Virus record (IMG/VR): IMGVR_UViG_3300032080_000005
Span: 1 to 63,647 of that record
Strand: one strand, 5' to 3'
Origin: a virus
Length of the DNA: 63,647 nt
A program made the position numbers and the translations under genes. This document shows, piece after piece, positions 203 to 60,742 of the stretch (position 1 is the first letter of the stretch; each line of letters opens with the position of its first letter). The notes beneath the pieces are model-generated. The model saw nothing but the letters and a program-made list of their open reading frames with translations. It searched no databases and was not told the origin of the DNA.

Positions 203-212
203 TGAGCTATCC
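203..212 (+). repeat. TGAGCTATCC repeat, possible operator or stoperator
   Basis: First of nine exact copies, all read on the + strand: 203, 1154, 1945, 5571, 57558, 57930, 58112, 58625 and 59418. One-mismatch copies lie at 7329 and 60498. Copies at 203, 58112 and 58625 are intergenic next to gene starts, and the copy at 57930 begins in a stop codon and ends one base into the next start codon. Several coding copies force the codons GAG CTA TCC (Glu-Leu-Ser), using the Leu codon CTA, which is rare here. The pattern recalls stoperators of mycobacteriophage L5, but no binding protein is identified. Confidence 0.55.
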
Positions 213-236
213 ACTACCAAGGAGGTTGATCCATAT

Positions 237-515
237 ATGGCACGTCCGACTCTGGTCGTGAAGAACATTGCCGATGCAGGCAAGCGGTACACGAAGGTCG
301 CGAAAGACGGCCGCAAGGCAGTCCGCACGGAGTTCGGCATTCCGTTCGCGCTTCAGGACATCATCGCCGCGAAGCCGCGGGCCAAGAGCGCCATCCTGGG
401 CGTCCTGAGCAACGGCGACCGCTTCAACGGGCAGAAGCTCGTGCGGCTGCTGGCGCGGACCCCCGACCTGACGGTCAAGGAGGTCGTGAAGGGCGTCGAG
501 AAAGCCGCGCTCTGA
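237..515 (+). CDS. conserved-looking basic protein of unknown function
   Basis: A 92-residue protein with many Lys, Arg and Val residues and no membrane segment. An AAGGAGG element (220-226) precedes the ATG. The C-terminal half has alternating charged and aliphatic residues, consistent with helices. The next gene starts on the last base of its stop codon, so the two are translationally coupled. I do not recognise a family. A nucleic-acid-binding or structural role is possible but unsupported. Confidence 0.7.
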   Translation: MARPTLVVKNIADAGKRYTKVAKDGRKAVRTEFGIPFALQDIIAAKPRAKSAILGVLSNGDRFNGQKLVRLLARTPDLTVKEVVKGVEKAAL

Positions 516-736
516 TGTTCGCCGTTGGCATCGGTGTCATCCTCTCGGTCATCATCAAGGCGCTGCTCGTCATCGCCCTCGTACTCGGCGGTGCCTACGC
601 ACTGACGACCTACGTCGAGCTGCCGGGCCTCGTGGATACGTTGATCTGGATCGGCGCCGGTGGTTACGCGCTGCTCTGCGTGATTGGCGTGTTCACGGTC
701 ATCGGCGCACTTGCCGAGGCCGGGCGCCGCTTTTAG
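515..736 (+). CDS. small integral membrane protein
   Basis: 73 residues with two strongly hydrophobic segments: about residues 3-30, rich in Val, Ile and Leu, and about 43-66, after a short polar turn with TYVELPG. It ends in a basic Arg-Arg-Phe tail. ATG overlaps the preceding TGA by one base. The stop overlaps the stop of the convergent gene at 733-1473. The two-helix hairpin would suit a holin or other membrane protein. No specific family is recognised. Confidence 0.7.
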   Translation: MFAVGIGVILSVIIKALLVIALVLGGAYALTTYVELPGLVDTLIWIGAGGYALLCVIGVFTVIGALAEAGRRF

Positions 737-1473
737 CGCGGACAGTTAATGCTGAGGACTCCCGGCACGCAGGCTTGTGCCGGGAGTCCCGACGCCTCTA
801 CTTCAACGATAGGAGGAACAGAAATTGGCGATTCCTGAGCAGGCTTTGGAACTTGACCTCCCGACGATCCTGATTGGTTCTGCGGGGAAGGTGAAGGGGT
901 TGGCCCCGCCTGGGGTGGAGGAGTATGGTTTCCTTTCGGTGCCGGGGACGCTTCGGGTTGGCCTCCGGCTTGATTGCCCGGATTCGGACCCGACCCACCT
1001 TCAGGTGCTGCTTCGTTTGCTGGAGGCTCGTTACGAACCCCCGGCTGATTGTCCGCCCGCCGTTTTGGAGACGATCCTGAATCTGAATTCTGCGTTGAAC
1101 GACCGGCTTCTTGGTCAACAGCGCGACGATCTTCCGCGCGCTGCTTAGCTTCCTGAGCTATCCGCCGACAGTCAACGTCATCAACTCTAGTGATGTCGGG
1201 GCGCTTAGCCAGCAATTCACAGAGCTGGTAGTCGGTGATGGAGTCAATGGCCGCCTGGAAGGATTCCTGACACTGCCGAGATTCTGAGCCATAGCGCAGG
1301 CAGGGCGATTCGATTTTGGTGATGCGCTCATTCTGCGCCACATCCGCCTGGTTGTTCAGCACGAACGTCACTGCAATGGCCAAAACCGCAACAACGCCGA
1401 GAACGAACCGCAGCCGGTCGATGTAGACCTGTAGGCGCGTGGGTGGGTGGGGGGTCTTCGTCCGCGAGTACAT
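733..1473 (-). CDS. membrane-anchored protein with long proline-rich tail
   Basis: 246 residues. A short basic N-terminus is followed by one transmembrane helix (about residues 22-40), then a Cys-containing, predicted helical exposed domain (about 45-110 with Cys at four positions) and a low-complexity stretch rich in Pro, Gly, Asn and Ser (about 115-215). A short C-terminal piece has two more Cys. This is the architecture of a single-pass protein with its bulk outside the membrane. It is the last gene of a leftward operon and overlaps the 31-aa gene by TGATG. A role in lysis (spanin-like) or superinfection exclusion is a guess. Confidence 0.65.
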   Translation of the reverse strand: MYSRTKTPHPPTRLQVYIDRLRFVLGVVAVLAIAVTFVLNNQADVAQNERITKIESPCLRYGSESRQCQESFQAAIDSITDYQLCELLAKRPDITRVDDVDCRRIAQEAKQRAEDRRAVDQEAGRSTQNSDSGSSPKRRADNQPGVRNEPPANEAAPEGGSGPNPGNQAGGQPEASPAPKGNHTPPPQAGPTPSPSPQNQSGSSGGQVPKPAQESPISVPPIVEVEASGLPAQACVPGVLSINCPR

Positions 1474-1568
1474 CAGATTCCGTAGGCCATGATCGACAGC
1501 ATAAGCGCCTGCGCCCAGACGAAGCAGACCGCGCTCGTCAGCGGAAACTTCACGGCTGCCGTGAGCAT
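1473..1568 (-). CDS. 31-aa hydrophobic peptide
   Basis: The short frame starts on the last base of the upstream stop (TAATG) and its TGA overlaps the ATG of the downstream gene (TGATG). It encodes one membrane-spanning segment rich in Ala, Val and Leu. Tight coupling at both ends is the main evidence that it is real. Function unknown; a holin or antiholin-like peptide is possible. Confidence 0.5.
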   Translation of the reverse strand: MLTAAVKFPLTSAVCFVWAQALMLSIMAYGI

Positions 1569-1750
1569 TATCCCCTCAAGTCCCATTTGAGCGAAATGCA
1601 GGCGGCCGCCAGGCCAATGGCCGCGATGACGATGGTTGGGTCCGGCTCTTTCCCGTTCGAAGGCCCGATTATGAACTCGTATACGAGGATGCCGAGGGCG
1701 GCGATGAACAGTATCAGGCGCCCTACCTGGGACCACGACGACGGCCTCAT
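1568..1750 (-). CDS. 60-aa membrane protein with two helices
   Basis: Two hydrophobic segments, about residues 10-26 and 40-54, are joined by a charged loop with GPSNGKEPDP, and the protein ends in a basic tail. This is the size and topology of small phage holins. The start overlaps the stop of the upstream 11-codon frame by ATGA. Together with the 31-aa peptide and the proline-rich anchored protein it forms a three- or four-gene leftward operon separate from the endolysin genes at 31.8-33.2 kb. Confidence 0.6.
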   Translation of the reverse strand: MRPSSWSQVGRLILFIAALGILVYEFIIGPSNGKEPDPTIVIAAIGLAAACISLKWDLRG

Positions 1751-1782
1751 TCATCGGCGGGGGTCTGATCGGCGGTAGGCAT
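1747..1782 (-). CDS. 11-codon leader peptide at the head of the leftward operon
   Basis: ATG at 1782-1780 lies 6 bases after a TAGGAT hexamer (1794-1789 on the minus strand), the spacing of a leaderless transcript, and its TGA overlaps the next ATG. The peptide is acidic and Pro/Thr-rich. It may serve only to load ribosomes on a leaderless mRNA. Confidence 0.35.
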   Translation of the reverse strand: MPTADQTPADE

Positions 1783-1797
1783 GAAGCTATCCTACCA

Positions 1798-1834
1798 TTG
1801 ACAGATCAGTTGCGCACGCGCTACAGTTCTGTCT
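1798..1834 (+). promoter_or_regulatory. consensus promoter for a leaderless gene
   Basis: TTGACA at 1798-1803, an 18-base spacer, TACAGT at 1822-1827, then 7 bases to the ATG at 1835. Transcription should start at or next to the A of ATG. This is the best example in the window of a full -35/-10 promoter joined to a leaderless start. Confidence 0.7.
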
Positions 1835-2104
1835 ATGCCTGCGCGCCACTTCACCTACACCGTTCCTTCGAGCATCGAAGGCGAACCCGACGAGGTCGTG
1901 GCAATCGCGATCCAGCAGATTCAGTCGCTCGCGGCCGTGGTCGCTGAGCTATCCACCGATACCTTCGTCCAGCTACGCGCCGCCGGGATCGACCCGGACG
2001 CCGACGAGGCTGTCTCGAAGTGGCTGGCATCCGAGGGCGGCGCCAAAGCGCGCGACATCGTCTACGCAGCACGTCACTTCGTCGAAGCGACGAAGGCACT
2101 CTAA
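1835..2104 (+). CDS. 89-aa soluble protein of unknown function
   Basis: The start is fixed by the promoter directly upstream, which leaves no room for a ribosome-binding site. The protein is acidic and mostly helical, with a repeated Ala-rich pattern and a C-terminal stretch ending HFVEATKAL. It contains one copy of the TGAGCTATCC repeat in its coding sequence (1945-1954), read as Glu-Leu-Ser. It sits alone between two promoters, so it may be expressed early. No family recognised. Confidence 0.65.
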   Translation: MPARHFTYTVPSSIEGEPDEVVAIAIQQIQSLAAVVAELSTDTFVQLRAAGIDPDADEAVSKWLASEGGAKARDIVYAARHFVEATKAL

Positions 2105-2661
2105 AACTGCTGTCTATCCACTCGTAGCCTTCAACAGCAGTACAACTGGCGCCCGCACATCTAACCGGATCGGGACCATAGTCCACTGGTATGCACATGC
2201 GGCACTGGGACCAGCTCACTATGAGGCGTCCAGCGGTGGAGAACATCCCGGCGGCTCAGGTCTAGAAATCCCTGCCCCGGCTACCACGTAGCCCGCCTCA
2301 CAACCAGTGTGGCAGCCGTGTCAAGTCCTACCCGGCCGCCCTCTCCAGGGTGACGTGGCCCGACGCCGCTGCTACCCCCTCCGGGGTCGCGAGGCGTCGA
2401 GCGTACACGTTCAAATTTCATTTGTCAAAACAGGCTTATTTGCAGGGCTTTTGCGGGTTCGGGGCGTAAGGAAATGAAAGGCCGATTCAAAGGCTTTGGC
2501 CCTCTTGAAGGGCCTGATTTGGCTCTGTAAGCGGGATCGCGGCGTTTTGGTTTCCGTTTTAGGGCGCGAAGGCTTTGGCCCTCTAACTGAAGCTGCTCCA
2601 TCCTTGACGGCGGCTATATCGTGAGTTCCGTGAGTACGAAACCCCGAGCAAAGGAGGAGTC
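2105..2661. other. 557-base region without a convincing gene
   Basis: No frame with coding character was found. The region holds AT-rich patches (about 2408-2450), two copies of GGCTTTGGCCCTCT (2492-2505 and 2571-2584) that can fold as small hairpins with a TTTG loop, and a second hairpin GGCCCT/AGGGCC at about 2498-2514. The same element occurs near 52689 and 53985, so it is likely a shared control site. The downstream gene has an AAAGGAGGAG ribosome-binding site. Confidence 0.5.
2492..2505 (+). repeat. GGCTTTGGCCCTCT element, copy 1 of 4
   Basis: Copies at 2492-2505, 2571-2584, 52689-52702 (last bases GT rather than CT) and 53985-53998. All lie in noncoding control regions. The core can pair as GGC/GCC around TTTG. 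Confidence 0.6.
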
Positions 2662-3243
2662 ATGTTTCATCGAGTAGGCGTCATCCTAGCAGTCCTGATC
2701 CTGGTGGCCTTCTACGCCATATCTGTTGGCGAACTTGCGGCCAAGCCGGTCCCCGAGCGCTGTACCACGGCTGCCTTCCAGTCGTTCGCGGCCGACGTGT
2801 GGGATGCGCGCTGGCAGCGCGGTGCCCCCGCCCCGGCGGCCATCCGCGCCAAGCGGAAGCGCGTCGCGTGTGCCCCGGTCGCCCATCGTCGGGCCATGAT
2901 CCGCATCTGGGATCGGGAGCGCGACCACTACTACAGCGTGCGCCGCACGAAGCTCTGGCAGGCGCGCGTCACTCCCTATCCCGGCGGCGGCCGTCTGTGG
3001 GCGATCCCCTACTACATCGTTGCCTGCGAGTCGGGAGGCCGCGCCAACTCTCCGGCCGCCCCCAATGGCGCCTACTCGCTGCTGACCGATCCCCTCCAGG
3101 GAGTTCCGACGTGGGAGACTTGGCGGCCGGATTGGGCGGATGGCTATGCGGCGCCGTATCAGGCGCCGAAGCGCGCCCAGGACATCGCCGCCCATCGGCT
3201 GTGGGTCGCCTACGGCACGGAACCGTGGGTAGAGTGCGCATAA
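2662..3243 (+). CDS. secreted Rpf/lysozyme-like muralytic protein
   Basis: 193 residues with an N-terminal hydrophobic segment (about 4-26) that would act as signal or anchor, a Cys/Arg-rich middle, and a C-terminal domain (about 112-193) resembling the resuscitation-promoting factor/lysozyme-like fold: IVACESGG at about 119-126 supplies the catalytic-Glu position, followed by NGAYSLL and a terminal WVECA with a paired Cys. In Rpf proteins this domain cleaves peptidoglycan glycan strands. A strong SD (AAAGGAGGAG) precedes the ATG. It is not near the endolysin genes, so it may act during infection or modify the wall rather than cause final lysis. Family assignment is by motif only. Confidence 0.7.
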   Translation: MFHRVGVILAVLILVAFYAISVGELAAKPVPERCTTAAFQSFAADVWDARWQRGAPAPAAIRAKRKRVACAPVAHRRAMIRIWDRERDHYYSVRRTKLWQARVTPYPGGGRLWAIPYYIVACESGGRANSPAAPNGAYSLLTDPLQGVPTWETWRPDWADGYAAPYQAPKRAQDIAAHRLWVAYGTEPWVECA

Positions 3244-3279
3244 GCCCAGAGCTAATATCGGCCCTCATATAAGGGAATA

Positions 3280-3345
3280 GCTGATACCCACAACCCCACG
3301 CCGTTGTAGGGCCGGGTCACAACGGCGTGGGGTTGTGGGGTCAGC
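3280..3345 (+). terminator. long GC-rich hairpin terminator
   Basis: About 22 base pairs can form between 3286-3307 and 3319-3341, extended by GCTGA/TCAGC at the base, with an 11-base loop. There is no T-run, as is usual in GC-rich actinobacterial phages. It separates the Rpf-like gene from the next promoter. Confidence 0.7.
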
Positions 3346-3371
3346 CTCTAGGGTGCTTTATCAGGCTGGCT

Positions 3372-3400
3372 TTGAGTGTTGCCATGCTCGGTAGTATAGT
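3372..3400 (+). promoter_or_regulatory. sigma70-type promoter
   Basis: TTGAGT (3372-3377), 17-base spacer, TATAGT (3395-3400). It fires toward the HNH gene and lies just after the hairpin at 3280-3345. About 180 bases of leader would precede the ATG at 3579. Confidence 0.6.
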
Positions 3401-3441
3401 GGGCTTGGTTATCAGCCGTTTGAGGGGGACTCCCTCATCAT

Positions 3442-3505
3442 ATGTCAAGCCGCCATATCGCACCCGACATCCATTGACAGGGCGCGGCTTGACATGCGCT
3501 ATACA
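3442..3505. promoter_or_regulatory. inverted-repeat operator with overlapping promoter boxes
   Basis: ATGTCAAGCCGC (3442-3453) and its exact reverse complement (3484-3495) flank 30 bases. The right arm contains TTGACA (3489-3494), another TTGACA lies at 3474-3479, and a TATACAT segment is at 3500-3506. The arrangement suggests a regulator that binds both arms and controls the promoter of the HNH gene. The 335-base gap 3244-3578 holds nothing else that I can support. Confidence 0.55.
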
Positions 3506-3578
3506 TTGGTTTTGAGAGGGCGCCACACTTCAAACGAAGCCCAACACGCTGTCGCGTCCCACAACGAAAGGAAATCAC

Positions 3579-4517
3579 ATGTCAATTTCAGAATTTACTC
3601 CGGCCGAGAATCCCCCGGTAACCAAAGGCGCGGCGCCGGACGACGATGTAGCGGCTGCCATCCAACGTCCGGTTCCCACCGCGCTCGCGCAACCGCTGCA
3701 TCGTCAAATCTTCTTGGACACCCATCCCGGCAGTCCGTGGGATTGCTATTTCTGCGGCGGTGCGGTCGAGGAGCTTCACGTCCATCATCGTGATGGCGAC
3801 CATGACAACAACGCCCCGGACAACCTTGTGGCGACGCATGGCGACTGCCACGCGCATCATCACCGCTCCGGGCTGGAATCATTCGAGCGGCCGCCTGCGG
3901 CAAGTCGGCTTCGGATCGCGGCCGGTAGCCTCGATGACATCGAAGGGCTGCGGAAGTCCGTGGCGAATCAGCGTCGGGGACTAGTGGCACATCAGCTACT
4001 TGACGCGAAAGCGGAAAAGCTGATTGATGCTCAGCTAGAGCACATCAAAGCAATGGAGCGGGCGGCGACGCTGGCACTCAAACACGCGGTGCGCGAGCAC
4101 CCGCTGGCGGACTGGATTAAATCCACGCATGGGATCAGCGAAAAGGGTGTCGGCCGCCTTCTTGCTGCCATTGGCGAGCCAGCCTACAATGCCGCCGAGG
4201 ATCGCCCACGGCGTGGTCCCGCAGAGCTGTGGGCCTACTGCGGCTATGCGCCAGGGCAGAAGCGGCGGCGTGGACAGAAGTCGAACTGGAATGCGGAGGC
4301 CAAAATGCGCGCCTACGTTGTCGCCGAGACGGTGGTCAAGGTCGGTGGCCCATACCGCGAAGTCTACGATCAGGCGCGTGCTTCGTGGGCTGATCGCGAC
4401 ACGAGTGACGGCCACAAGCACAACCACGCGCTGCGGCTCGTTGCCAAGGCGATTCTTCGCGACATCTTCGTGCGGTCCATTGAAGTGCCGACACCCAGGA
4501 GTCATGCGGCCGTATGA
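3579..4517 (+). CDS. HNH nuclease fused to IS110-type (Transposase_20) C-domain
   Basis: 312 residues. An HNH-like zinc site occupies about 54-100: CYFCGG, HVHHRDGDHDNN, then DNLVATHGDCHAHHH. After a predicted coiled coil (about 125-175) a helix-hairpin-helix region resembles the C-terminal domain of IS110/IS116/IS902 transposases: HGISEKGVGRLLAAIG, then LWAYCGYAP and a basic stretch. The N-terminal DEDD domain of IS110 transposases is absent and appears replaced by HNH. SD ACGAAAGGAAA precedes the ATG. I infer a DNA-cutting or structure-recognising enzyme of replication or recombination, or a stand-alone homing-type nuclease. The catalytic serine of IS110 enzymes is not obvious. Confidence 0.7.
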   Translation: MSISEFTPAENPPVTKGAAPDDDVAAAIQRPVPTALAQPLHRQIFLDTHPGSPWDCYFCGGAVEELHVHHRDGDHDNNAPDNLVATHGDCHAHHHRSGLESFERPPAASRLRIAAGSLDDIEGLRKSVANQRRGLVAHQLLDAKAEKLIDAQLEHIKAMERAATLALKHAVREHPLADWIKSTHGISEKGVGRLLAAIGEPAYNAAEDRPRRGPAELWAYCGYAPGQKRRRGQKSNWNAEAKMRAYVVAETVVKVGGPYREVYDQARASWADRDTSDGHKHNHALRLVAKAILRDIFVRSIEVPTPRSHAAV

Positions 4518-4521
4518 ACTT

Positions 4522-4575
4522 GCTCCCGCCCACCAAATACCCCGCGTGCTCCTTCCCTCGCCCGTGGGCGGGAGC
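4522..4575 (+). terminator. hairpin terminator after the HNH gene
   Basis: GCTCCCGCCCAC at 4522-4533 pairs perfectly with 4564-4575 around a 30-base loop. It lies directly after the stop codon at 4517. Confidence 0.6.
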
Positions 4576-4604
4576 TTGATCGGTTTTGACGATCATGGTA
4601 GGCT
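4576..4604 (+). promoter_or_regulatory. promoter of the main replication operon
   Basis: TTGATC (4576-4581), 17-base spacer, TAGGCT (4599-4604), immediately after the hairpin. Genes from 4687 to at least 10735 follow with very short gaps or overlaps. Confidence 0.5.
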
Positions 4605-4686
4605 GGTTACGTGATCGGTAGGCCATTCCAGCTTCGCATCCCATTGACTCGGCGCCGCCGGTCATTCAAACTTCAGAGGAGGACTT

Positions 4687-5907
4687 TTGAGTAAGATCGC
4701 CCAGGCAAAGAAACTGATCGAGGGAGGTATGTCCCAGCGCAAGGCGGCTGCCGAGGTCGGTATAGCGCAGTCCACGCTCAGCGAGGCACTGAAGCGCGAA
4801 GGCTTCGAGCCGCCTACGCTTTCATCTGGTCCGACTCCCGCGGGGATCGAGGTTGACGATCAGGATGCCTCCATTACGTCGAAGCCGCTGACTGACCCAC
4901 GCGGCGTTACCCCCGATCAACTGCTGGAGAAACACGGCCTTGATCCCGAGGACTGGATCGTCACGAGCATTCGCGTTTCCGAGTGGGGAAAAACTGACGA
5001 GCCGATGTTTCAGTTGCGCGTCAACGCGACCCGCCGCGAGGGCCTTCTGGTGGTCCCCGACCTTGGCGATGACTTCGTGCCGTGGGAGTACGGCCAGGTG
5101 GAGGAGTACAGCGAGCGCCGCGTGGCGCTGATCCCCGACCTGCACGCGCCCTTCCATGACGAGCGTGCTCTGCGGGCGGTCTGCGATCTTCTCGCCGTCG
5201 AGGAACCGGCGCAGGTCATCTTCTTGGGCGACGTGGCCGACAACTCCATGCTCTCCAAGCACCGGACGCATCGCCGCTTCGGCGCCCTGCTCAACGAGAC
5301 GAACGACGCCGTCGTCGCGAACTTCCGCCGCGTGCGTGAAGCCGTGCCAAACGCGCAGATCATCCTGCTGCCGGGCAACCACGACGACCGCGTTCTCTAC
5401 TACGCCCAGGATATGGCGCCCGAGTTCGAAGCGCTGCGGCCGGGGAAGCTCTCGGACGACGAGGAGACGCCGGAGTCGAGCATCGGCTTCCGCACCCTCT
5501 GGCGGCTGGACGAGCTTGGCATCGAGCTGGTGGACGAGGACTGGAAACTCGCGCAGTTCGGCATCACGCCTGAGCTATCCGCCCGCCACGGCTACTTGAC
5601 CGGGAACAACTCCGAGCGGAAACTGTTGGAGAAGCACGGCCGCTCGCAGATACACGGCCACGACCACCGCGGCAGCCTGATCTATCGCACGAAGCACGAC
5701 CCCCTCGACATTCGCGTTGCGATGTCCTGCGGGACGCTCTGCGAGATTAAACCGGACGGTCTGGGCTACGAGCCGGACCCCGACTGGACCCCCGGCATGG
5801 GCTGGTGCCAGGTCTGGGATGACGGGCTGTTCCAGCTCAGCTTCCTGCCTTACGTCAAGAACAAACTGCTGACGCCCTGGGGCGCAGCCTTCGAGGGGAA
5901 GGAGTAA
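4687..5907 (+). CDS. calcineurin-like metallophosphoesterase with N-terminal helix-turn-helix
   Basis: 406 residues starting at TTG with GAGGAGG a few bases upstream. Residues 1-40 form a Hin/resolvase-like helix-turn-helix (MSQRKAAAEVGIAQSTLSEAL). The catalytic domain spans about 150-370 with metal-binding motifs: PDLHAPFHD, FLGDVADN, LPGNHDD, SARHGYLTG and HGHDHRG. These are the five motifs of the Ser/Thr phosphatase, Mre11 and cyclic-nucleotide phosphodiesterase superfamily. The DNA-binding domain suggests it acts on DNA ends or is tethered to phage DNA. First gene of the replication operon. Substrate unknown. Confidence 0.85.
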   Translation: MSKIAQAKKLIEGGMSQRKAAAEVGIAQSTLSEALKREGFEPPTLSSGPTPAGIEVDDQDASITSKPLTDPRGVTPDQLLEKHGLDPEDWIVTSIRVSEWGKTDEPMFQLRVNATRREGLLVVPDLGDDFVPWEYGQVEEYSERRVALIPDLHAPFHDERALRAVCDLLAVEEPAQVIFLGDVADNSMLSKHRTHRRFGALLNETNDAVVANFRRVREAVPNAQIILLPGNHDDRVLYYAQDMAPEFEALRPGKLSDDEETPESSIGFRTLWRLDELGIELVDEDWKLAQFGITPELSARHGYLTGNNSERKLLEKHGRSQIHGHDHRGSLIYRTKHDPLDIRVAMSCGTLCEIKPDGLGYEPDPDWTPGMGWCQVWDDGLFQLSFLPYVKNKLLTPWGAAFEGKE

Positions 5908-5911
5908 AGAT

Positions 5912-6498: not shown

Positions 6499-6862
6499 CA
6501 GCGCCACCCAGGTTTCCTCGATGGGGGAGACTCCTGCTGAAGCGCGCCGCCGGATGGCTTCGTCCGGCGGCGCCGATGGCGCGAGCGCGGAGGCAACTCC
6601 GCCGCTTGGCAAGGAGGTCGATGGCCCGCTCCAGCCGCAGCACCTGGCCGCCATCGAGGCAGCCGAGGGTGGATTCTCCGGTGGCGCGGTAGACGGCGGA
6701 ACCACCGAGGACGCGCCCGACGAGATTGAGCCGCCGACGCCGTCGAAAGCGATGGAGACGATTCGCCAGCTCAGCCAGGACAAACTCCAGCTTCAGACGG
6801 AACGGGACGCCGCTCTCGCCAAGCTCGACCGCTATGAGGCGAAGTTCGGGGAGCTGGACTGA
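6479..6862 (+). CDS. 128-residue class protein with C-terminal coiled coil
   Basis: I chose ATG at 6479, inside the end of the previous gene, because AGGAGGAGGAG lies just upstream and the earlier in-frame ATG has no such site. The 127 residues have a low-complexity N-terminal two thirds rich in Ala, Gly, Pro and Glu, and a C-terminal predicted coiled coil (about 88-125, with Arg/Gln/Leu heptads). The stop overlaps the next ATG (TGATG). Likely an oligomerising accessory protein; function unknown. Confidence 0.6.
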   Translation: MDQGRPNSATQVSSMGETPAEARRRMASSGGADGASAEATPPLGKEVDGPLQPQHLAAIEAAEGGFSGGAVDGGTTEDAPDEIEPPTPSKAMETIRQLSQDKLQLQTERDAALAKLDRYEAKFGELD

Positions 6863-7383
6863 TGCTGGTCTACTTCATCGGCGGCCCGGCTGACGGGCGC
6901 ACGGAAGCCATCCAGAATCCTCACCCGACCTACCGCATGGTCGAGTTGAAATCGCTGGCGATCTACAGGGCGTTCGACGTTGAGGACGCATTCCCTCCGG
7001 CGGCCGTCACTGATTGGGACGGGGACGAGCACGAGTATCGCGTCACGCGCCGGTCGCCTCGCTACGCCATCGCGGAGTGGATTGCGCCGCCTGCGGACGT
7101 GCGCTTCGAGGTCCGCGTGGATGTCGATCCATTCGACCAGGCTGCCAGCGAGACGCTGCGGCGGTTGTTCCTGGAGCGCGCGAGCGAGAAGGGCGGCGTC
7201 CGCTGCTTGGGCGCGAGCCTCACGAACGGCATCGAGGCGGAGTTGCAGTTCCTCGTGCGGGTCGAAGGCCCGGAGGACGCCGTCGCCATTCAGCTTGCGA
7301 GCGAGAAGGTCCAGCACTACATCGACGCTGAGCTATCTGCGCTGAAGCGCGGGATTCGTCAGGTCGCGGCGGTGACTACCTGA
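6862..7383 (+). CDS. 173-aa hypothetical protein
   Basis: The start overlaps the previous stop by one base and the same happens at its end. The N-terminal 75 residues form a small domain with MLVYFIGGPADGRTE, a pattern seen in short phage proteins of unknown role. The remainder is mixed alpha/beta with Arg and Glu, including VRVDVDPFDQAASETLRRLF and a C-terminal helix. A one-mismatch copy of TGAGCTATCC (7329-7338) lies near its end. Confidence 0.65.
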   Translation: MLVYFIGGPADGRTEAIQNPHPTYRMVELKSLAIYRAFDVEDAFPPAAVTDWDGDEHEYRVTRRSPRYAIAEWIAPPADVRFEVRVDVDPFDQAASETLRRLFLERASEKGGVRCLGASLTNGIEAELQFLVRVEGPEDAVAIQLASEKVQHYIDAELSALKRGIRQVAAVTT

Positions 7384-17478: not shown

Positions 17479-18150
17479 ATGGCAGAGTTCCAGGCGTGGC
17501 CCAAGATTCCACGGCTCAATCGCAACTGCATCGTCACCGAGAAGATCGACGGCACCAACGCGGCCGTGGTCATCGAGAAAGTCGGTCCTGGCTGGCCGAA
17601 ACATGAGTTCGAGCTGGCCCGCGTGGACCTCGACCTGACGGACGCCAGCGAGCTGGCCGTCTTCGCGCAGTCGCGCAAACGGCTGCTTCAGACCAACGAG
17701 GACGGCGGCAAGGGGAGCGACAACTTCGCCTTCGCGGCGTGGGTGAAAGAGAACGCACTCGAACTGGCGGCCGTGCTTGGCGAGGGACGCCACTTCGGCG
17801 AGTGGTGGGGCGCCGGTATCCAGCGGGCCTACGGCTTGACGGAGCAGGATAAGCGCTTCTCTCTATTCAACGCGGGACGCTGGCACGACCGTGCGGCTAA
17901 CGGCATCGGCAAGGAGGTTTGCCCGGACTGTTGCAGCGTGGTTCCGGTCGTCGCACTCGGCAAGGTGGGCGAAGCTCCTTGGCTGAAAGCGATGAACGAC
18001 CTCGCCGAGAACGGCAGCGCCGCGGTGCCGGGCTTCGACAATCCCGAGGGAATCGTCGTCTACCACACGGCCGCGCGTACGTCGTTCAAGGTCACGTTCG
18101 ACCAGGACGACCTGCCCAAGTCTGTCGCTGAAGCACAGGCGGCTGCATGA
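17479..18150 (+). CDS. Rnl2-like RNA ligase
   Basis: 223 residues. Nucleotidyltransferase motif I VTEKIDGTNA at about 20-29 holds the lysine that becomes adenylated. Motif III FGEWWGAGIQ is at about 98, motif IV NPEGIVVY at about 188, and motif V FKVTF at about 201. The set fits the T4 Rnl2 branch of ATP-dependent RNA ligases, which seal 3'-OH/5'-phosphate nicks, including in tRNA anticodon loops. A pair of Cys (CPDCC, about 150) is an unusual insert. It is the first of two unrelated RNA ligases in this genome (the other is RtcB at 22677). Confidence 0.82.
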   Translation: MAEFQAWPKIPRLNRNCIVTEKIDGTNAAVVIEKVGPGWPKHEFELARVDLDLTDASELAVFAQSRKRLLQTNEDGGKGSDNFAFAAWVKENALELAAVLGEGRHFGEWWGAGIQRAYGLTEQDKRFSLFNAGRWHDRAANGIGKEVCPDCCSVVPVVALGKVGEAPWLKAMNDLAENGSAAVPGFDNPEGIVVYHTAARTSFKVTFDQDDLPKSVAEAQAAA

Positions 18151-22676: not shown

Positions 22677-24008
22677 ATGTACATGATGACCACGCCGTAT
22701 CGAGACTTGACGATCTTTGGAGAGGCCGACGACAACACGGTCGAGCAGATGAACAACTGCCTCGATGTGCAGTCCGGCTCTAAAGGTGTTCTTTGCGCGG
22801 ACAACCATTTGGGCTACGCGCAGCCGGTCGGTGGGGTCGTTGCGTACAGAAACCGCATCAGCGTCAGCGGTGTGGGGTACGACATCGGCTGCGGCAACAA
22901 GGCCGTGAAAACCAACCTGAAGGCGGCCGACGTGGACATCGCCGCCATCATGGACGAGATTGAGCGGCGCATCGCCTTCGGCATCGGGCCGAACCCCGGC
23001 GAGAAGGCGCCCGACCATCCGGTTCTCGACTCCATCCGCGATGCGGACTTCGCACCGCAGCGCGCGCTGCTCGACAAGGCAGCCAACCAGCTCGGAACGG
23101 TCGGCGGCGGGAACCACTACGTGGACCTGTTCGAAGACGAGGATGGCTGGCTTTGGATCGGCGTCCACTTCGGCAGCCGCGGGTTCGGGCACACGACCGC
23201 CAACGGCTTCATGTGGATGTCGCGTGGCAAACCGTTCCAGACGAAGGCAGAGTTCAAGGAGGACTTGATGGCGGACCCCATCACCTTCCGTACGGACTCC
23301 GCCGAGGGCGAAGGCTACATCGCCGCAATGCAGCTCGCGGGAGAATACGCCTACGCTGGCCGCGATGTGGTCGTGGACCGCGTCCTGGAGATTCTGGGCG
23401 CGGAGGCTGTCTGGGGCGTCCACAACCACCACAACTACGCTTGGGCCGAGGAGCACTTCGGCGAGAGCTGGCACGTCGTCCGCAAGGGCGCGACCCCCGC
23501 GTGGCCGGGCCAGTACGGCTTCGTTGGTTCCACGATGGGCGAGAACTCCGTCATCCTGCGCGGCGCGGAGGATCAGGCGGGAAAGACGCTCGCCTACCAG
23601 GAGGCCGCGCTGTACTCGACGGTCCACGGCGCTGGCCGCGCGATGTCGCGTAGCCGGGCGGCCGGGAAGCAGAAGAAGCGCTGGACCTGCAACAACCGTG
23701 ACTGCGACTGGTTCCAGCCGCCGCATACGCACAAGCCGGAAGACGAGAAATGCCCGAAGTGCGGACATCCCAAACTCTCGAAGCAGTGGGTTCAGATGGA
23801 GCAGGGCGAGATTGACTGGACCGTCGAACGCAACTTCGTGCGCAACAACGGCGTGGAGCTACGGGGCGCGGGCGCCGAGGAGGCACCGTTGGCGTACAAG
23901 CGCCTGCCGAAGGTTCTGGAGGCGATGCACGACACCATCGAAGTCGTCCACACGCTGCGCCCGGTCGGCGTGGCGATGGCGCCGAACGGGGTGCCTGCCG
24001 ATGACTGA
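22677..24008 (+). CDS. rtcB: RtcB RNA ligase with inserted zinc ribbon
   Basis: 443 residues. All RtcB landmarks are present in order: DNHLGYAQPVGG (about 42), GVGYDIGCGN (about 65), LGTVGGGNH (about 139), GVHFGSRGFGH (about 160), HNHHNYA (about 248) and TVHGAGRAMSR (about 317), the last carrying the histidine that forms the GMP adduct. Between this motif and the C-terminal strands lies an extra segment with two Cys pairs (CNNRDC and CPKCG, about 339-364) that is a zinc-ribbon insert not part of the standard family. RtcB joins 2',3'-cyclic or 3'-phosphate RNA ends to 5'-OH ends, as produced by anticodon nucleases. The gene overlaps the ATP-dependent ligase by 8 bases. Confidence 0.9.
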   Translation: MYMMTTPYRDLTIFGEADDNTVEQMNNCLDVQSGSKGVLCADNHLGYAQPVGGVVAYRNRISVSGVGYDIGCGNKAVKTNLKAADVDIAAIMDEIERRIAFGIGPNPGEKAPDHPVLDSIRDADFAPQRALLDKAANQLGTVGGGNHYVDLFEDEDGWLWIGVHFGSRGFGHTTANGFMWMSRGKPFQTKAEFKEDLMADPITFRTDSAEGEGYIAAMQLAGEYAYAGRDVVVDRVLEILGAEAVWGVHNHHNYAWAEEHFGESWHVVRKGATPAWPGQYGFVGSTMGENSVILRGAEDQAGKTLAYQEAALYSTVHGAGRAMSRSRAAGKQKKRWTCNNRDCDWFQPPHTHKPEDEKCPKCGHPKLSKQWVQMEQGEIDWTVERNFVRNNGVELRGAGAEEAPLAYKRLPKVLEAMHDTIEVVHTLRPVGVAMAPNGVPADD

Positions 24009-56594: not shown

Positions 56595-56791
56595 ACGGCG
56601 GCCCGGTACTGATTCGGCGCAACCCGCGCGACGTTGAGGCGTCTGGAGCGGGCGCACCTGAGCGCATCATCAAGCGCGGTACGCGCTCTGTGGTCCCGCT
56701 GCCATGCCTGAACTGCGGCAGTAGGAACCGCAAGCCCAACCGGCTGAAGTGCGGCACGCTGGAATGCCAGAACTGCGGGGACGGTGGATGA
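56591..56791 (+). CDS. 66-aa zinc-ribbon protein
   Basis: ATGA overlap. CLNCGSRNRKPN and CGTLECQNCG give two CxxC-type knuckles in the last 30 residues. Arg-rich N-terminal half. Nucleic-acid binding is likely. Confidence 0.55.
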   Translation: MNGGPVLIRRNPRDVEASGAGAPERIIKRGTRSVVPLPCLNCGSRNRKPNRLKCGTLECQNCGDGG

Positions 56792-57063
56792 CTCCCGCGA
56801 AGCCCTGGCCGAAGGATGGCATTCCGGCTGGCTACGTGAAGCGCATTCACGTTGACCAGCACGTCATCAAGCGGAACCGCAAACACGGCCGCAACGATCC
56901 GCCGCTGACGCTCCAGACCAGTCGCGGCGCCATCAAGGCGCACACCGTCAACATCGACGGCGCGTCCCGGCTCGTCAACACGCCGGACAAGCCGCTAAGC
57001 TGCGGCGCCGTCATCTACATCGAAACCCGCTCTGCGGTTTCCTACCGAAGGGAGGCGCTATGA
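56788..57063 (+). CDS. 91-aa basic protein
   Basis: ATGA overlap at the start, another at the end. HVDQHVIKRNRKHGRNDPPLTL is the most notable stretch and is followed by beta-like strands (VNIDGASRLVN, AVIYIETRSAVSYRRE). Unknown. Confidence 0.5.
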   Translation: MTPAKPWPKDGIPAGYVKRIHVDQHVIKRNRKHGRNDPPLTLQTSRGAIKAHTVNIDGASRLVNTPDKPLSCGAVIYIETRSAVSYRREAL

Positions 57064-57230
57064 TGCACGACAAGCCACGCCGCTACAGCGTCGGCGCGCT
57101 GCTGACCACGCAAGGCGGCCGCGAAGTGCGGAAACGCATCGAGGTTATGGCGCGCTCCCCGCAGGGTGCCCGCGCTGAGGTTCGGCGGAAGCATCCCGGC
57201 TGGCGTCCCTACAACCCGAGGGCGATATGA
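57060..57230 (+). CDS. 56-aa basic protein
   Basis: Starts in an ATGATG overlap with the previous stop; the second ATG is an alternative. Mostly Arg- and Gly-rich. ATGA overlap with the next gene. Confidence 0.5.
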   Translation: MMHDKPRRYSVGALLTTQGGREVRKRIEVMARSPQGARAEVRRKHPGWRPYNPRAI

Positions 57231-57433
57231 GCGAGTGGCGCTGTACCTGCAAGGGCGACACGGGCAACGATCCAACGTGCCCGGCACACGGTGGAGCAGC
57301 ACCGCAACCGCGCCACGAGTTCGCGGGCGAATACACCGGGCCACCTGAGATAGTCACGCTCAGCGATGGCCGCCAAGGTGTCGCGCCCGCATGGATGGCT
57401 GACGTTCTCCGCTGTGCTGGGATGGCATCGTGA
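57227..57433 (+). CDS. 68-aa Cys-containing protein
   Basis: ATGA overlap. CTCKGDTGNDPTCPAH in the N-terminus could bind zinc, followed by a helical C-terminus. GTGA overlap with the next gene. Confidence 0.5.
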   Translation: MSEWRCTCKGDTGNDPTCPAHGGAAPQPRHEFAGEYTGPPEIVTLSDGRQGVAPAWMADVLRCAGMAS

Positions 57434-57615
57434 CGCCGCCCCGTGCCTACCCTGGCCGCGACAACGCGCGCCTACTGCGCCGCGCTAGGTCGCTGACGCG
57501 CAATCAGTCGGCCGCAACGAATCAGCGCTCGCGCTGCTGCGACCAGCCAAGACACATTGAGCTATCCAACCGTCCGCTAGTGACGGGCTGCGCAAACTGT
57601 GGGGCGGTAGTATGA
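57430..57615 (+). CDS. 61-aa Arg/Cys protein
   Basis: GTG start in a GTGA overlap. CCDQ and CANCG close the C-terminal half as a likely zinc knuckle. Contains a TGAGCTATCC repeat (57558-57567) read as Glu-Leu-Ser. Confidence 0.5.
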   Translation: MTPPRAYPGRDNARLLRRARSLTRNQSAATNQRSRCCDQPRHIELSNRPLVTGCANCGAVV

Positions 57616-57932
57616 ACCGCATGGTTGTGCCAACGCTCGCCGAAACCAGCCGCGATTTCATCGGGCCGCTGAATCCCCACGTTGGCAGCCTTGCGCGGCT
57701 GGTACCTGGAGCGCGCGCCATCGCATCGAGGCGGTCCTACGTCCGCATTCATCGACACGAACGCGGACCCCGCGTCTACCTAGTCGGCCGCCGCGTGCAT
57801 CATGGTCCGGCGTTTGGTCTGGCCGCCGTCCTGTGCTGGCGGTTCCGCTGGCGCACGTTGGCCGCCGCTCTAGGCGCATACGCCGCGACGGACTGGCGGG
57901 ATTTCCCTTTCACTGACGGATGCAACCATTGA
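57612..57932 (+). CDS. 106-aa protein with hydrophobic C-terminal half
   Basis: ATGA overlap with the previous gene. Basic central part (RRSYVRIHRHERGPRV), then AFGLAAVLCWRFRWRTLAAALGAY that may be membrane-associated. Its stop codon is the start of a TGAGCTATCC repeat. Confidence 0.5.
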   Translation: MNRMVVPTLAETSRDFIGPLNPHVGSLARLVPGARAIASRRSYVRIHRHERGPRVYLVGRRVHHGPAFGLAAVLCWRFRWRTLAAALGAYAATDWRDFPFTDGCNH

Positions 57933-57939
57933 GCTATCC
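57930..57939 (+). repeat. TGAGCTATCC repeat between two genes
   Basis: The TGA is the stop of the 106-aa gene and the ATG of the next gene follows directly at 57940. Confidence 0.55.
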
Positions 57940-58074
57940 ATGAGCGGAATCCAATCATGCCCTCATTGCGGCAGCGCCGACATAGTCGCGGTCGAGTTGG
58001 CCGAGGAGGAGCGCGACTGTCTCTATGAGTGCGAAGACTGCGAGGAGCAATTCAACGGCGACGAGTTTGTGTGA
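57940..58074 (+). CDS. 44-aa zinc-ribbon peptide
   Basis: CPHCGSADI at residues 7-15 and CEDCEEQF about 23 residues later form a classic zinc ribbon of the kind seen in small phage and ribosomal proteins. Acidic overall. The TGTGACCAACGTCACA element overlaps its stop. Confidence 0.6.
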   Translation: MSGIQSCPHCGSADIVAVELAEEERDCLYECEDCEEQFNGDEFV

Positions 58075-58085
58075 CCAACGTCACA
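58070..58085. promoter_or_regulatory. TGTGACCAACGTCACA palindrome, copy 1
   Basis: Matches the CRP/GlxR consensus TGTGA-N6-TCACA exactly and can also form an RNA hairpin with loop CAAC. Same 16 bases at 58606-58621 and 61779-61794. Confidence 0.55.
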
Positions 58086-58111
58086 CACTACACCCCCACA
58101 ATCTGATAGCG

Positions 58112-58121
58112 TGAGCTATCC
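58112..58121 (+). repeat. TGAGCTATCC repeat upstream of 58142
   Basis: Lies in the 67-base gap, 12 bases before the ACGAAAGGA element of the next gene. Confidence 0.55.
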
Positions 58122-58141
58122 CCTCACGAAAGGACATTACA

Positions 58142-58339
58142 ATGCGTATCCGAATGATCTTGCTTCAAAATATGCTTGACCAAGCATATTGCGACGGCAT
58201 GAAGCACGAACGGGAAAATCCGCTGCGTAACAAGAGCCTGACGCGCACCGTTGCTGGGTGCTATGCCCGGAATCAAATGCGCAGACACTTCACGGCGCGT
58301 AAAGGTCCGGGCTGGGAGCATGAGGAGGAGGCACCGTGA
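58142..58339 (+). CDS. 65-aa charged protein
   Basis: ATG with ACGAAAGGACATTACA upstream. Helical, basic, with MLDQAYCDGMKHEREN. GTGA overlap with the next gene. Confidence 0.55.
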   Translation: MRIRMILLQNMLDQAYCDGMKHERENPLRNKSLTRTVAGCYARNQMRRHFTARKGPGWEHEEEAP

Positions 58340-58605
58340 CCGGCTCATTCATCGGTAAATGCCATCCAACCGATGGCATCGAGCGCGTCCCCATCAACAT
58401 TGACCCCGCCGTGCGGAAGCGGCTGCGTGACCTGCTGGAGGATTTCCCAGAGTTCCATGCAGTCGGCTACAGCGCATTCATCAACCGCGCCATCGAGCTT
58501 GCAGAAGGCGAGGCGATGGTGGCGCGGCGCGAATGTAAGCATTCATGCGCTGATGTAGCCGCAACTCTCTGTCCAAGTTGCGGCGCTGACCTAAGCCGTC
58601 CCTAG
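58336..58605 (+). CDS. ribbon-helix-helix-like regulator with zinc knuckle
   Basis: 89 residues from GTG. Residues 19-56 (VPINIDPAVRKRLRDLLEDF, then SAFINRAIELAEG) follow the beta-strand/helix/helix order of the MetJ/Arc ribbon-helix-helix fold. A C-terminal C-x3-C...CPSCGAD adds a probable zinc site. It sits just upstream of the RIIA gene and its control repeats, so it is a candidate binder of TGAGCTATCC or TGTGACCAACGTCACA. Assignment is moderate. Confidence 0.55.
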   Translation: MTGSFIGKCHPTDGIERVPINIDPAVRKRLRDLLEDFPEFHAVGYSAFINRAIELAEGEAMVARRECKHSCADVAATLCPSCGADLSRP

Positions 58606-58621
58606 TGTGACCAACGTCACA
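58606..58621. promoter_or_regulatory. TGTGACCAACGTCACA palindrome, copy 2
   Basis: Follows the stop codon of the RHH-like gene by 1 base and precedes TGAGCTATCC at 58625-58634. The promoter box TAGTCT (58652-58657) lies behind, so the palindrome could regulate RIIA or end the previous transcript. Confidence 0.55.
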
Positions 58622-58624
58622 CAC

Positions 58625-58657
58625 TGAGCTATCCAACCCTGCTAGTCTGCCCGTAAC
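58625..58657 (+). promoter_or_regulatory. RIIA promoter with TGAGCTATCC in the spacer
   Basis: TAGTCT (58652-58657) preceded by TGC fits an extended -10. TGAGCTATCC (58625-58634) lies in the -35/spacer region, an obvious place for repression. Confidence 0.45.
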
Positions 58658-58679
58658 GTAAGTAAGCAAACGAAAGGAA

Positions 58680-58691
58680 CCCCCCCCCCCC
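58680..58691 (+). repeat. C12 homopolymer before the RIIA start codon
   Basis: Twelve C residues lie between the ACGAAAGGA ribosome-binding element and ATG 58694, so the spacing from SD to start is about 15 bases, longer than optimal. Slippage here would tune translation. Confidence 0.7.
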
Positions 58692-58693
58692 TC

Positions 58694-60742
58694 ATGATTC
58701 CAGAGCGAACCGGCGTAACCACTGTGAGCACCGTGCAAGGCGAGGACGTGAAAATGTCCATCGACCAGTCGGCGTTGGCCCACATCATGAACGTCTTGAC
58801 GGACCTGTACGCCGATCCCGAGTTGGCCTGCATCCGCGAGTACCTGACCAACGCGCTCGATTCACATATCGAGGCAGGCCAGACGCGGCCGGTTGAGATA
58901 ACCACGCCTACGGCTCTGCGGCCGCTGCTGACGATCCGGGATTACGGAGTCGGGCTAGACGCCGATGGCATCCGGGACATCTACTCCCGCTACGGCGCGA
59001 GCACGAAGCGCGAGACGAACGATGCGGTCGGAATGCTCGGCCTTGGCTGCAAGTCGGCGCTGTCCTACGTGGACCAGTTCACGCTCGCCGGAATCAAAAA
59101 CGGCCATCGCATCGTTGTGAGCATCGGCCGCGACGAAACCGGCGCGGGCACGATGACGGTCCTAGAGACTGAGGACGAATGCACCGAGCCGGATGGCGTC
59201 GAAATCTGCATCCCCACGGATGACGAGTACGCGCTGTCCCGCAAGGCTGCCGATTTCCTCTCCTATTGGGAACCGGGCCTGGCGCTGCTGAACGGCGCGG
59301 TGCCCGCCCCACTGGAGGGCTACGAAGTCGGCGACTACATCGTCGCCGACCGGAACCGCTCATACTCCGCGCTGGGGCGCTTCGACGGCCACCCGCTGAC
59401 TATCGTTATGGGGAACGTGAGCTATCCGCCGCCCGATGACTTCACTAGCGAGGTAGTGGACTCCCTGCCGGACTCTAAGCGACTCGTGGTCCGCGTCCCC
59501 ATCGGGGCGGTCCACTTCACGCCTTCGCGTGAGGGGTTGCAGGACTCCACCCGCACGCGGGAGGCCATCCACACGGCGCTGGAGGATTTCCAGGGCTTGG
59601 TCGCGACCGCCGTCACCGACGCCGTCACGAACGCGCCGGATCGACCGGCTGCCGCCAAAGCGCTGATCGAAGCTCGCGCGGCGTTCGGCAAAAAGAACAT
59701 TCCAGAGTTGAAGTGGGAAGGTGAGGAGATTCCGGTTGTCCTGTCGGCGGAAGACTTGGACCCGATCCCGCTGGGCGACGGCAAAGTGAAGGACGCCGCG
59801 CTCTGGAAATCGAAGTCACGCACTGGCGGCCAGCGTACCGCCGCAGGGCAAATCACCCTTGACGAGGCGGGCGAATGTCCCTGGATTCTCGGCTACAACA
59901 ATACGAAATGGTCGAAAACGCAGCGGACCAAGCTCGACCGCTACATGGAGCACCACAACCTGAGCGAAAACGCGAGCGAGGAGAATTATCTCGTCACGGA
60001 CGCGAAGGCTGTACCCCGGCCCGAATGGATCGACGGTGCGGTGCTCGCGGTGGACTGGCAGGACGTGAGGGCATGGAAAGATCCCGCGAAGGTACGCGCT
60101 GGCAGTAGCGGTGGCGGCATCAAGTACGCGGGCACCTACCCGACCTACACGAACGGGCGGCGCCTTCATGAGCACTTCCCCGCTGACAACCTGCCGAAGG
60201 TCGGGCGCAAGCTCTACTACGTCGTCATCCACGATAAATACGATTGGCGCGCTCATGAATGCGCCGACCTGCTGGCCGAAGACGCCTACGTTGTCTGTCT
60301 CACTGGATCGCGGGCGGCCAAGTTCAAACGGCTCTTTCCCCACGCGCGTCCGGCTATGGAGGCGGCCAAGCGCGCTGCGCAGGGCTGGTACAAATCCCTG
60401 AGCGACGATTCCCGGCTCGCTATCGCAATCGGCCCGGACCTGGGCGGCTCATACCCTGGCCCGTCTGCGCTCCCGGCTGACAAGGTAAACGATCCCGAGC
60501 TATCCAGACTCTGCGCCATCCGGCAGCTATGGGAGGGCGACACGCTGGAGGCGCGCTGGCGGGCACGCAAGGATTTCATTACGGTGCCAGAGGACTACAC
60601 GCCGGACATCGACCCGGCGACGGTCTGTGAGCGCTACCCCTTGATCGAGGAAATGTACTACGGTACGATAAACGGAAACCTTGACCACGCCGTACTTTAC
60701 GTCAATGCGGTCTACGCGGCCGCCAACAAAGGAGGTAAGTAA
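58694..60742 (+). CDS. RIIA-like GHKL ATPase protein
   Basis: 682 residues. N-terminal GHKL (Bergerat) ATP-binding domain: CIREYLTNALDSHIEAG at about 47-63, IRDYGVGLDADGIRDIYSRYG at about 78-98 and AVGMLGLGCKSALSYV at about 105-120 are the N, G1 and G2 boxes. This matches RIIA proteins of T4-like and many actinobacterial phages. The central part (about 230-290) resembles the transducer domain, and the C-terminal 300 residues are unlike T4 RIIA. RIIA/RIIB act at the membrane and let T4 escape RexAB exclusion. Likely anti-exclusion or membrane function. Confidence 0.85.
   Translation: MIPERTGVTTVSTVQGEDVKMSIDQSALAHIMNVLTDLYADPELACIREYLTNALDSHIEAGQTRPVEITTPTALRPLLTIRDYGVGLDADGIRDIYSRYGASTKRETNDAVGMLGLGCKSALSYVDQFTLAGIKNGHRIVVSIGRDETGAGTMTVLETEDECTEPDGVEICIPTDDEYALSRKAADFLSYWEPGLALLNGAVPAPLEGYEVGDYIVADRNRSYSALGRFDGHPLTIVMGNVSYPPPDDFTSEVVDSLPDSKRLVVRVPIGAVHFTPSREGLQDSTRTREAIHTALEDFQGLVATAVTDAVTNAPDRPAAAKALIEARAAFGKKNIPELKWEGEEIPVVLSAEDLDPIPLGDGKVKDAALWKSKSRTGGQRTAAGQITLDEAGECPWILGYNNTKWSKTQRTKLDRYMEHHNLSENASEENYLVTDAKAVPRPEWIDGAVLAVDWQDVRAWKDPAKVRAGSSGGGIKYAGTYPTYTNGRRLHEHFPADNLPKVGRKLYYVVIHDKYDWRAHECADLLAEDAYVVCLTGSRAAKFKRLFPHARPAMEAAKRAAQGWYKSLSDDSRLAIAIGPDLGGSYPGPSALPADKVNDPELSRLCAIRQLWEGDTLEARWRARKDFITVPEDYTPDIDPATVCERYPLIEEMYYGTINGNLDHAVLYVNAVYAAANKGGK

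What the first reader, a model, noticed from the sequence alone, without database searches (positions are those of the whole stretch)
203..59427. One-direction 10-mer TGAGCTATCC occurs nine times and forces a rare Leu codon
Exact copies at 203, 1154, 1945, 5571, 57558, 57930, 58112, 58625 and 59418 all read on the + strand; for a 64-kb sequence one would expect well under one. Near copies at 7329 and 60498. Intergenic copies sit next to promoters, at 203 just after a -10 box and at 58625 in a promoter spacer. Three exact coding copies (plus the near copies at 7329 and 60498) read Glu-Leu-Ser with CTA, a codon otherwise avoided. The orientation bias and spread resemble L5 stoperators.
Basis: partly seen in the sequence, partly recalled or inferred. 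Interest (0 to 1): 0.85.

Follow-up and report, generated by a model that had tools for sequence, protein, structure and literature searches.

The report
Strict one-way 9-base phage control motif
Three related uncultured phages carry 38 perfect copies of the nine-letter word GAGCTATCC, all pointing the way the early genes are read, some placed on promoters and some inside genes, which looks like a set of binding sites for an unidentified factor that controls transcription of the early genes.

Summary
The real unit is the 9-mer GAGCTATCC. The window has 10 exact copies, and two relatives (IMG/VR, about 80% aa identity) have 16 and 12. All 38 lie on the early-gene sense strand; one-mismatch variants are not enriched. 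In the circularly permuted genomes the copies form one early block; replication and late genes have none. A synonymous-codon shuffle gives 0.1-0.2 in-gene copies per genome against 4-6 seen. CTA codons inside the motif are conserved in 7 of 8 comparisons, other CTA codons in 15 of 85.

Several copies overlap predicted start sites of promoters with a TAGACA-17-TAAGCT or CRP-type (TGTGA-N6-TCACA) architecture. About half lie in coding DNA, in all three frames.

Best explanation: an orientation-dependent transcription-control site working like cluster A operators/stoperators. It is not a member of that family: 9 invariant bp, no cluster A repressor homologue, no integrase found, half coding, early block only. 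The reader protein is unknown. The RHH-like 58336 protein is excluded as the shared reader, having no homologue in the relatives. RNA-level recognition is the main rival.

The parts
204..212 (+). GAGCTATCC at the predicted +1 of a TAGACA (169-174) - 17 bp - TAAGCT (192-197) promoter, upstream of gene 237-515
   Evidence: aligned exact copy in G1 7139; same promoter and motif seen in G2 9871 by eye
1155..1163 (+). GAGCTATCC just after the stop codon of ORF 825-1148
   Evidence: copies in the corresponding gap in G1 8125 and G2 10428, flanks not alignable
1946..1954 (+). GAGCTATCC in coding DNA (Glu-Leu-Ser) of gene 1835-2104
   Evidence: conserved in G1 8926 and G2 11321
5572..5580 (+). GAGCTATCC in coding DNA (Glu-Leu-Ser) of the metallophosphoesterase gene 4687-5907
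   Evidence: conserved in G1 11031 and G2 14103
7330..7338 (+). One-mismatch variant GAGCTATCT (Glu-Leu-Ser) in gene 6862-7383; may be chance or a decayed site
   Evidence: variants are not enriched
57559..57567 (+). GAGCTATCC in coding DNA (Glu-Leu-Ser) of ORF 57430-57615
   Evidence: absent at the aligned place in G1 and G2
57931..57939 (+). GAGCTATCC at a gene junction: overlaps the TGA stop of 57612-57932 and directly precedes ATG at 57940
   Evidence: conserved in G1 64114
58070..58121 (+). CRP-type palindrome TGTGACCAACGTCACA (58070-58085), extended -10 TGATAGCGT (TAGCGT at 58107-58112), GAGCTATCC directly behind it (58113-58121)
   Evidence: same arrangement in G1 64290 and G2 68320
58606..58648 (+). 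rIIA promoter: CRP-type palindrome (58606-58621), GAGCTATCC (58626-58634) between it and the extended -10 TGCTAGTCT (TAGTCT at 58643-58648)
   Evidence: in G1 64829 and G2 68815 the motif lies behind the -10
59419..59427 (+). GAGCTATCC in coding DNA (Val-Ser-Tyr-Pro frame) of the rIIA-like gene 58694-60742
   Evidence: absent at the aligned place in G1 and G2
60497..60505 (+). GAGCTATCC in coding DNA (Glu-Leu-Ser) of the rIIA-like gene
   Evidence: conserved in G2 1278
4687..5907 (+).
   Evidence: HTH_psq E 1.3e-5, above cut-off; clade comparison

Best explanation
GAGCTATCC is a double-stranded DNA recognition site for one sequence-specific factor, phage- or host-encoded and not identified here, that controls transcription of the early-gene block. 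Copies on promoters (about -6 to +9 around the start site, or between the CRP site and the -10) act as operators on initiation. Copies inside the transcribed block, coding or intergenic, act on passing RNA polymerase in one orientation only, most likely as polar roadblocks or terminators that shut early genes off, in the manner of cluster A stoperators. Shown: the copies, strand bias, strictness, selection against drift, block confinement, overlap with predicted promoters. Inferred: protein binding, repression, roadblock action, timing.
For: 38 exact copies in three genomes, none on the other strand, variants not enriched. Confined to one early block. Not due to codon usage; motif CTA codons conserved 7/8 against 15/85 for other CTA. 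Overlap with predicted start sites: directly behind the -10 in five CRP-type promoter cases, and at +1 of the 204 promoter. CRP-class promoter copies would not be transcribed whole, and in the rIIA promoter the motif lies on different sides of the -10 in different genomes with the same orientation; both point to DNA-level reading. Coding copies in all frames. Precedent: L5-type sites act on initiation and elongation and fail when inverted (PMC9283540, PMC6550527).
Against: No reader identified; no cluster A repressor homologue. The -10s and start sites are predictions. An exact 9-mer without degenerate members is unusual for a protein-DNA site. Only three genomes carry it, and several of the promoter cases are orthologues of one another. 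No lysogeny genes found, so the need for silencing is unexplained unless it is early-gene shut-off.
Confidence: 0.52

Rival explanations
1. The motif acts in RNA: GAGCUAUCC in early mRNA is cut by a sequence-specific endoribonuclease (as T4 RegB does at GGAG) or bound by an RNA-binding protein that silences or destabilises early transcripts.
For: Always on the sense strand, position-tolerant (untranslated, coding, gene junctions) and strict; confined to early transcripts; overlaps a ribosome binding site in G1 614 and G2 4321.
Against: CRP-class promoter copies span the predicted start and would not be in that transcript whole. The motif is not more unpaired than when planted at random (0.379 against 0.433). 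No perfect complement GGATAGCTC is encoded in any of the three genomes, which argues against a phage antisense RNA.
Confidence: 0.2
2. The motif is read in the non-template strand of the transcription bubble by an elongation factor (as RfaH reads ops), giving antitermination or pausing along the early block, so it promotes rather than silences early transcription.
For: Strict, strictly oriented, repeated along the transcribed block and present in the region of promoter opening.
Against: Copies upstream of the CRP site (G2 6789, 68265) and between CRP site and -10 (window 58626) are outside the open region of that promoter. No NusG- or RfaH-like phage protein appeared among the families scanned, though not every ORF was scanned.
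Confidence: 0.12
3. The motif serves replication, packaging, DNA entry or recombination (a priming, nicking or Chi-like site), not gene expression.
For: Short strict one-strand motifs are typical of such signals; the block could be the first DNA to enter.
Against: Confinement to the early block, repeated overlap with promoters and enrichment at gene gaps are not predicted by these roles. Spacing is not regular.
Confidence: 0.06
4. By-product of codon usage or of a repeated Glu-Leu-Ser peptide.
For: Most coding copies read Glu-Leu-Ser.
Against: Synonymous shuffles give 0.11-0.21 in-gene copies, never more than 2, against 4-6. Copies occur in all three frames and about half are non-coding. CTA is rare (3.7-7.1% of Leu codons).
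Confidence: 0.01

Closest known systems
Operators/stoperators of cluster A mycobacteriophages (L5, Bxb1, TipsytheTRex) and related Gordonia A15 and Rhodococcus CA phages
   Same: About 20-30 short asymmetric sites, oriented with transcription, some in promoters, others in the transcribed region (PMC9283540, PMC6550527, PMC5559632, PMC5721134).
   Different: Those are 13-14 bp with variable positions (RedRock: only 4 of 21 sites within two mismatches are exact), mostly intergenic or at gene ends, spread over structural and early arms, read by a cluster A repressor, in temperate phages. Here: 9 invariant bp, about half coding, one early block, no repressor homologue, no lysogeny genes found.
Start-Associated Sequences (SAS) of cluster K mycobacteriophages and Microbacterium cluster EF phages
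   Same: Short asymmetric repeat, mostly one orientation, unknown reader (PMC3203893, PMC7302621).
   Different: SAS are 13 bp immediately upstream of start codons; here only a few copies (G1 614, G2 4321, 57931) lie at a start codon.
18-bp repeats of virulent Microbacterium cluster EC phages
   Same: Asymmetric, same orientation, in phages without repressor or integrase (PMC7302621).
   Different: All intergenic, 21-30 bp upstream of start codons and degenerate; here half are coding, and the word is exact and shorter.
17-bp repeats of cluster O mycobacteriophages (Corndog)
   Same: More than 30 copies per genome, one third in coding regions, no stable lysogens recovered, function unknown (PMC4351075).
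   Different: Palindromic and not oriented with transcription.

Membership tests
Cluster A-type operator/stoperator system | Multiple asymmetric sites predominantly co-oriented with transcription | tested here: met
   38 of 38 on the sense strand of the early block
Cluster A-type operator/stoperator system | Some sites overlap early promoters (operators) | tested here: met
   promoters are predicted, not mapped
Cluster A-type operator/stoperator system | 13-14 bp site with invariant and variable positions | tested here: not met
   9 bp, exact; one-mismatch variants not enriched; RedRock and Bxb1 run as comparison
Cluster A-type operator/stoperator system | Sites in short intergenic spaces or at gene ends | tested here: not met
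   About half of the copies lie inside genes
Cluster A-type operator/stoperator system | Sites spread over the genome, structural genes included | tested here: not met
   One early block only
Cluster A-type operator/stoperator system | Encodes a cluster A-type monomeric repressor | tested here: not met
   tblastn with RedRock and Bxb1 repressors: best E 0.94
Cluster A-type operator/stoperator system | Temperate: integrase or parABS, plus repressor | tested here: inconclusive
   None among proteins scanned, but not every ORF was scanned and the window lacks part of the genome
Cluster A-type operator/stoperator system | Orientation-dependent repression of initiation and elongation | not testable with these tools
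   Needs reporters
Start-Associated Sequences (SAS) | Immediately upstream of start codons, over the ribosome binding site | tested here: not met
   Only G1 614, G2 4321 and the 57931 junction fit; most copies do not
Cluster EC-type 18-bp repeat | Intergenic, 21-30 bp upstream of start codons | tested here: not met
   Half of the copies are coding

The most novel reading that the evidence does not exclude
A previously undescribed polar transcription-control system in phages with no recognised lysogeny genes. An exact 9-bp site, tolerated inside genes in any frame, is read by a new class of factor that acts on both initiation and elongation, independently evolved from the cluster A repressor and used to shut off, or sustain, the early block rather than to maintain lysogeny.
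Probability: 0.35. Interest if true: 0.75.

Novelty: new variant of a known kind. Interest (0 to 1): 0.55.

Why it matters
Orientation-dependent sites that act on both initiation and elongation are, as far as I know, well documented only for the cluster A repressor family. Here an unrelated phage group shows the same layout with a shorter, invariant word that is also written into genes, which gives a clean system for asking how a bound factor acts on RNA polymerase from one side only. The motif is exact enough to use as a pull-down bait for its unknown reader.

Tried and rejected
Codon-usage or peptide origin: rejected. RHH-like protein 58336 as reader: no homologue in the relatives. Cluster A repressor homologue: none; the sub-threshold Bxb1 hit near 63083 falls in gene 63044-63538, which is poorly conserved and does not look HTH-like in the alignment. 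The 92-aa neighbour 237-515 as reader: AlphaFold model weak (pLDDT 57), no fold, Pfam or PDB match. tRNA link: GGATAGCTC resembles a tRNA D-arm, and the single copy in phage Lyell lies in a tRNA gene, but the motif copies here are not in tRNA genes. Promoter-plus-motif patterns in IMG/VR hit only chance single copies outside the two relatives. More distant syntenic phages: none has the strict motif; G15/G13 has three copies, but within a loose GAGCTATC[C/T/G] bias. No relatives found in GTDB genomes, and none by DNA in named phages beyond an 87-base match in an RNA ligase gene. A last scan with the clade-specific 92-aa protein gave no further members. Regular spacing: not supported.
Full report
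Observation. TGAGCTATCC occurs nine times in the window, all on +, where 0.05 are expected. Comparison with relatives shows that the conserved word is the 9-mer GAGCTATCC. The base before it is T in only 19 of 38 copies, the base after it is never T (A 19, G 13, C 6), and no nearby flanking column is strongly conserved. The window holds ten exact 9-mers; the 'near copy' at 60498 is one of them.

Relatives. The window is an IMG/VR virus record of 63,647 bases. A metallophosphoesterase query found two relatives at about 80% aa identity: IMGVR_UViG_3300005438_000006 (G1, 69.9 kb) and IMGVR_UViG_3300045391_002292 (G2, 69.1 kb). They hold 16 and 12 exact copies: 38 in all with the window, none on the opposite strand. 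One-mismatch variants are few and not enriched on the sense strand over the other strand (3, 5 and 3 against 0, 4 and 7). In unbiased word counts GAGCTATCC and its overlapping words are at or near the top in each of the three genomes, apart from poly-G in the window and a separate repeat in G2. Gene order shows that the three records are circularly permuted and that the window lacks roughly 6 kb present in G1 between its two ends. Unrolled, the copies form one contiguous early block (about 18 kb in G1) read on +. The replication genes and the leftward late genes have none.

Beyond the clade. A terminase query found syntenic phages at lower identity. Clade B (G15/G13/G14, G18, G12) and clade C (G16, G17) lack the strict motif. 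G15/G13 has three copies, but its GAGCTATC words are followed by C, T or G alike, so this is a looser composition effect. The motif was not found in Clavibacter phage CN1A; Microbacterium phage Lyell has one copy, in a tRNA gene.

Selection. Shuffling synonymous codons within each genome gives means of 0.11, 0.21 and 0.12 in-gene copies, never more than 2, against 4, 6 and 4. At Leu codons conserved between two genomes, CTA inside the motif keeps the whole 9-mer in 7 of 8 comparisons, while CTA elsewhere is kept in 15 of 85. Where one genome has a site and the aligned place in another does not, the latter usually differs by several bases (GAGTTGGCC, GAGCAGCGC, GGCCATTCC), so turnover is mostly all-or-none; 59419 against G1 (CAGCTACCC, two changes) is the closest to an intermediate. 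Coding copies occur in all three frames, so no peptide drives them.

Anatomy at promoters. The copy at 204 starts at the predicted +1 of a TAGACA-17-TAAGCT promoter, and the same hexamers stand before the motif in both relatives. A second promoter class carries an exact CRP-type palindrome, TGTGA-N6-TCACA (3, 7 and 5 exact copies in window, G1 and G2; 0 in shuffles), with an extended -10 TGNTAGNNT. The spacing puts the palindrome centre near -41.5, as in class II CRP promoters (the latter from general knowledge). In five of these the motif begins 35.5 or 36.5 bases after the centre, directly behind the -10, and would span the start site. In the rIIA promoter the window has the motif between palindrome and -10, while both relatives have it behind the -10. 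In G1 614 and G2 4321 it overlaps the ribosome binding site downstream of a TACACT -10. Others abut stop codons (1155, 57931). My hand classification gives about 18-19 of 38 copies non-coding or at gene junctions, more than expected if, as I judge from the gene calls, most of the block is coding; I did not test this formally.

Mechanism. Because promoter copies of the CRP class would not be transcribed whole, and because the motif can sit at different places in the same promoter with the same orientation, a DNA-level site is more likely than an RNA-level one. RNA folding shows no tendency of the motif to stay unpaired. Absolute co-orientation with copies inside the transcribed block calls for a polar effect on polymerase. 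L5-type sites are the documented precedent: they act on initiation and elongation and fail when inverted (PMC9283540; PMC6550527). I therefore favour operator/stoperator-like control of early genes (0.52), with RNA-level action (0.20) and bubble-reading antitermination (0.12) as rivals. Binding, repression and timing are inferred.

Reader. Not identified. No homologue of the RedRock or Bxb1 repressor is present. The RHH-like 58336 protein is private to the window. The N-terminal HTH_psq domain of the metallophosphoesterase 4687-5907 is the only significant HTH found in the block; the corresponding region differs in clade B but is similar in clade C, and both lack the motif. It is a lead, not a finding. 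A host protein is also possible.

Membership. The layout features of cluster A stoperators are met: asymmetric, co-oriented, partly on promoters. Site length and strictness, intergenic location, genome-wide spread and repressor homology are not. It is filed as working like a stoperator system, not as a member. SAS, cluster EC and cluster O repeats were considered and do not fit.

Limits. Three genomes only, and several promoter cases are orthologues of one another, so independent cases are fewer than copies. Host unknown; promoters predicted; gene calls made with a simple scorer; not every ORF was scanned for lysogeny or regulatory genes.

Noticed in passing
58070-58085, 58606-58621, 61779-61794 (+); also G1 and G2: Exact CRP-type palindromes TGTGA-N6-TCACA (15 in three genomes, 0 in shuffles) head early promoters at class II spacing to an extended -10; absent from the clade B and C loci. 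Suggests that these phages use host CRP/GlxR to start early transcription.
   Followed up: partly
61767-61800: One CRP palindrome lies inside a longer inverted repeat (GCCCCGTAGTGTGACCAACGTCACACTACGGGGC) between genes 60743-61756 and 62072-62689, so terminator-like hairpin and activator site may be combined; similar in G1 68791 and G2 2546.
   Followed up: no
58681-58692; also behind G1 64829 and G2 68815: Poly-C tract between the ribosome binding site and the start of the rIIA-like gene in the window and G2, with a C tract at the corresponding promoter in G1; possible slippage-type switch.
   Followed up: no
63540-63600: Long poly-G then poly-C run close to the right end of the record; G1 and G2 have poly-G at the corresponding place upstream of the motif at 614/4321. 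The window record breaks here and lacks about 6 kb found in G1.
   Followed up: partly
17479-18150 and 22677-24008: RNA ligase and RtcB-type tRNA-splicing ligase genes together with a dozen tRNA genes; looks like a tRNA-repair kit.
   Followed up: no
L004:4925-5188 and L008:8567-8824: WYL-domain-only protein with a motif copy inside its gene in G1 and G2; the region is missing from the window.
   Followed up: no
L008-L011 (G2): About 16 strand-biased copies of a separate word (around ACAGCACCGCCACGCT) in G2 only.
   Followed up: no
L059-L061 (G18): Eight copies of overlapping words around TTCCCCATTAGGGGACA, strand-biased, plus a tRNA T-arm-like repeat (GGTTCGATTCC).
   Followed up: no
3579-4517: ORF matching both an HNH endonuclease family and a transposase-labelled PHROG, with no homologue called in G1 or G2: likely a mobile insertion in the early block.
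   Followed up: no
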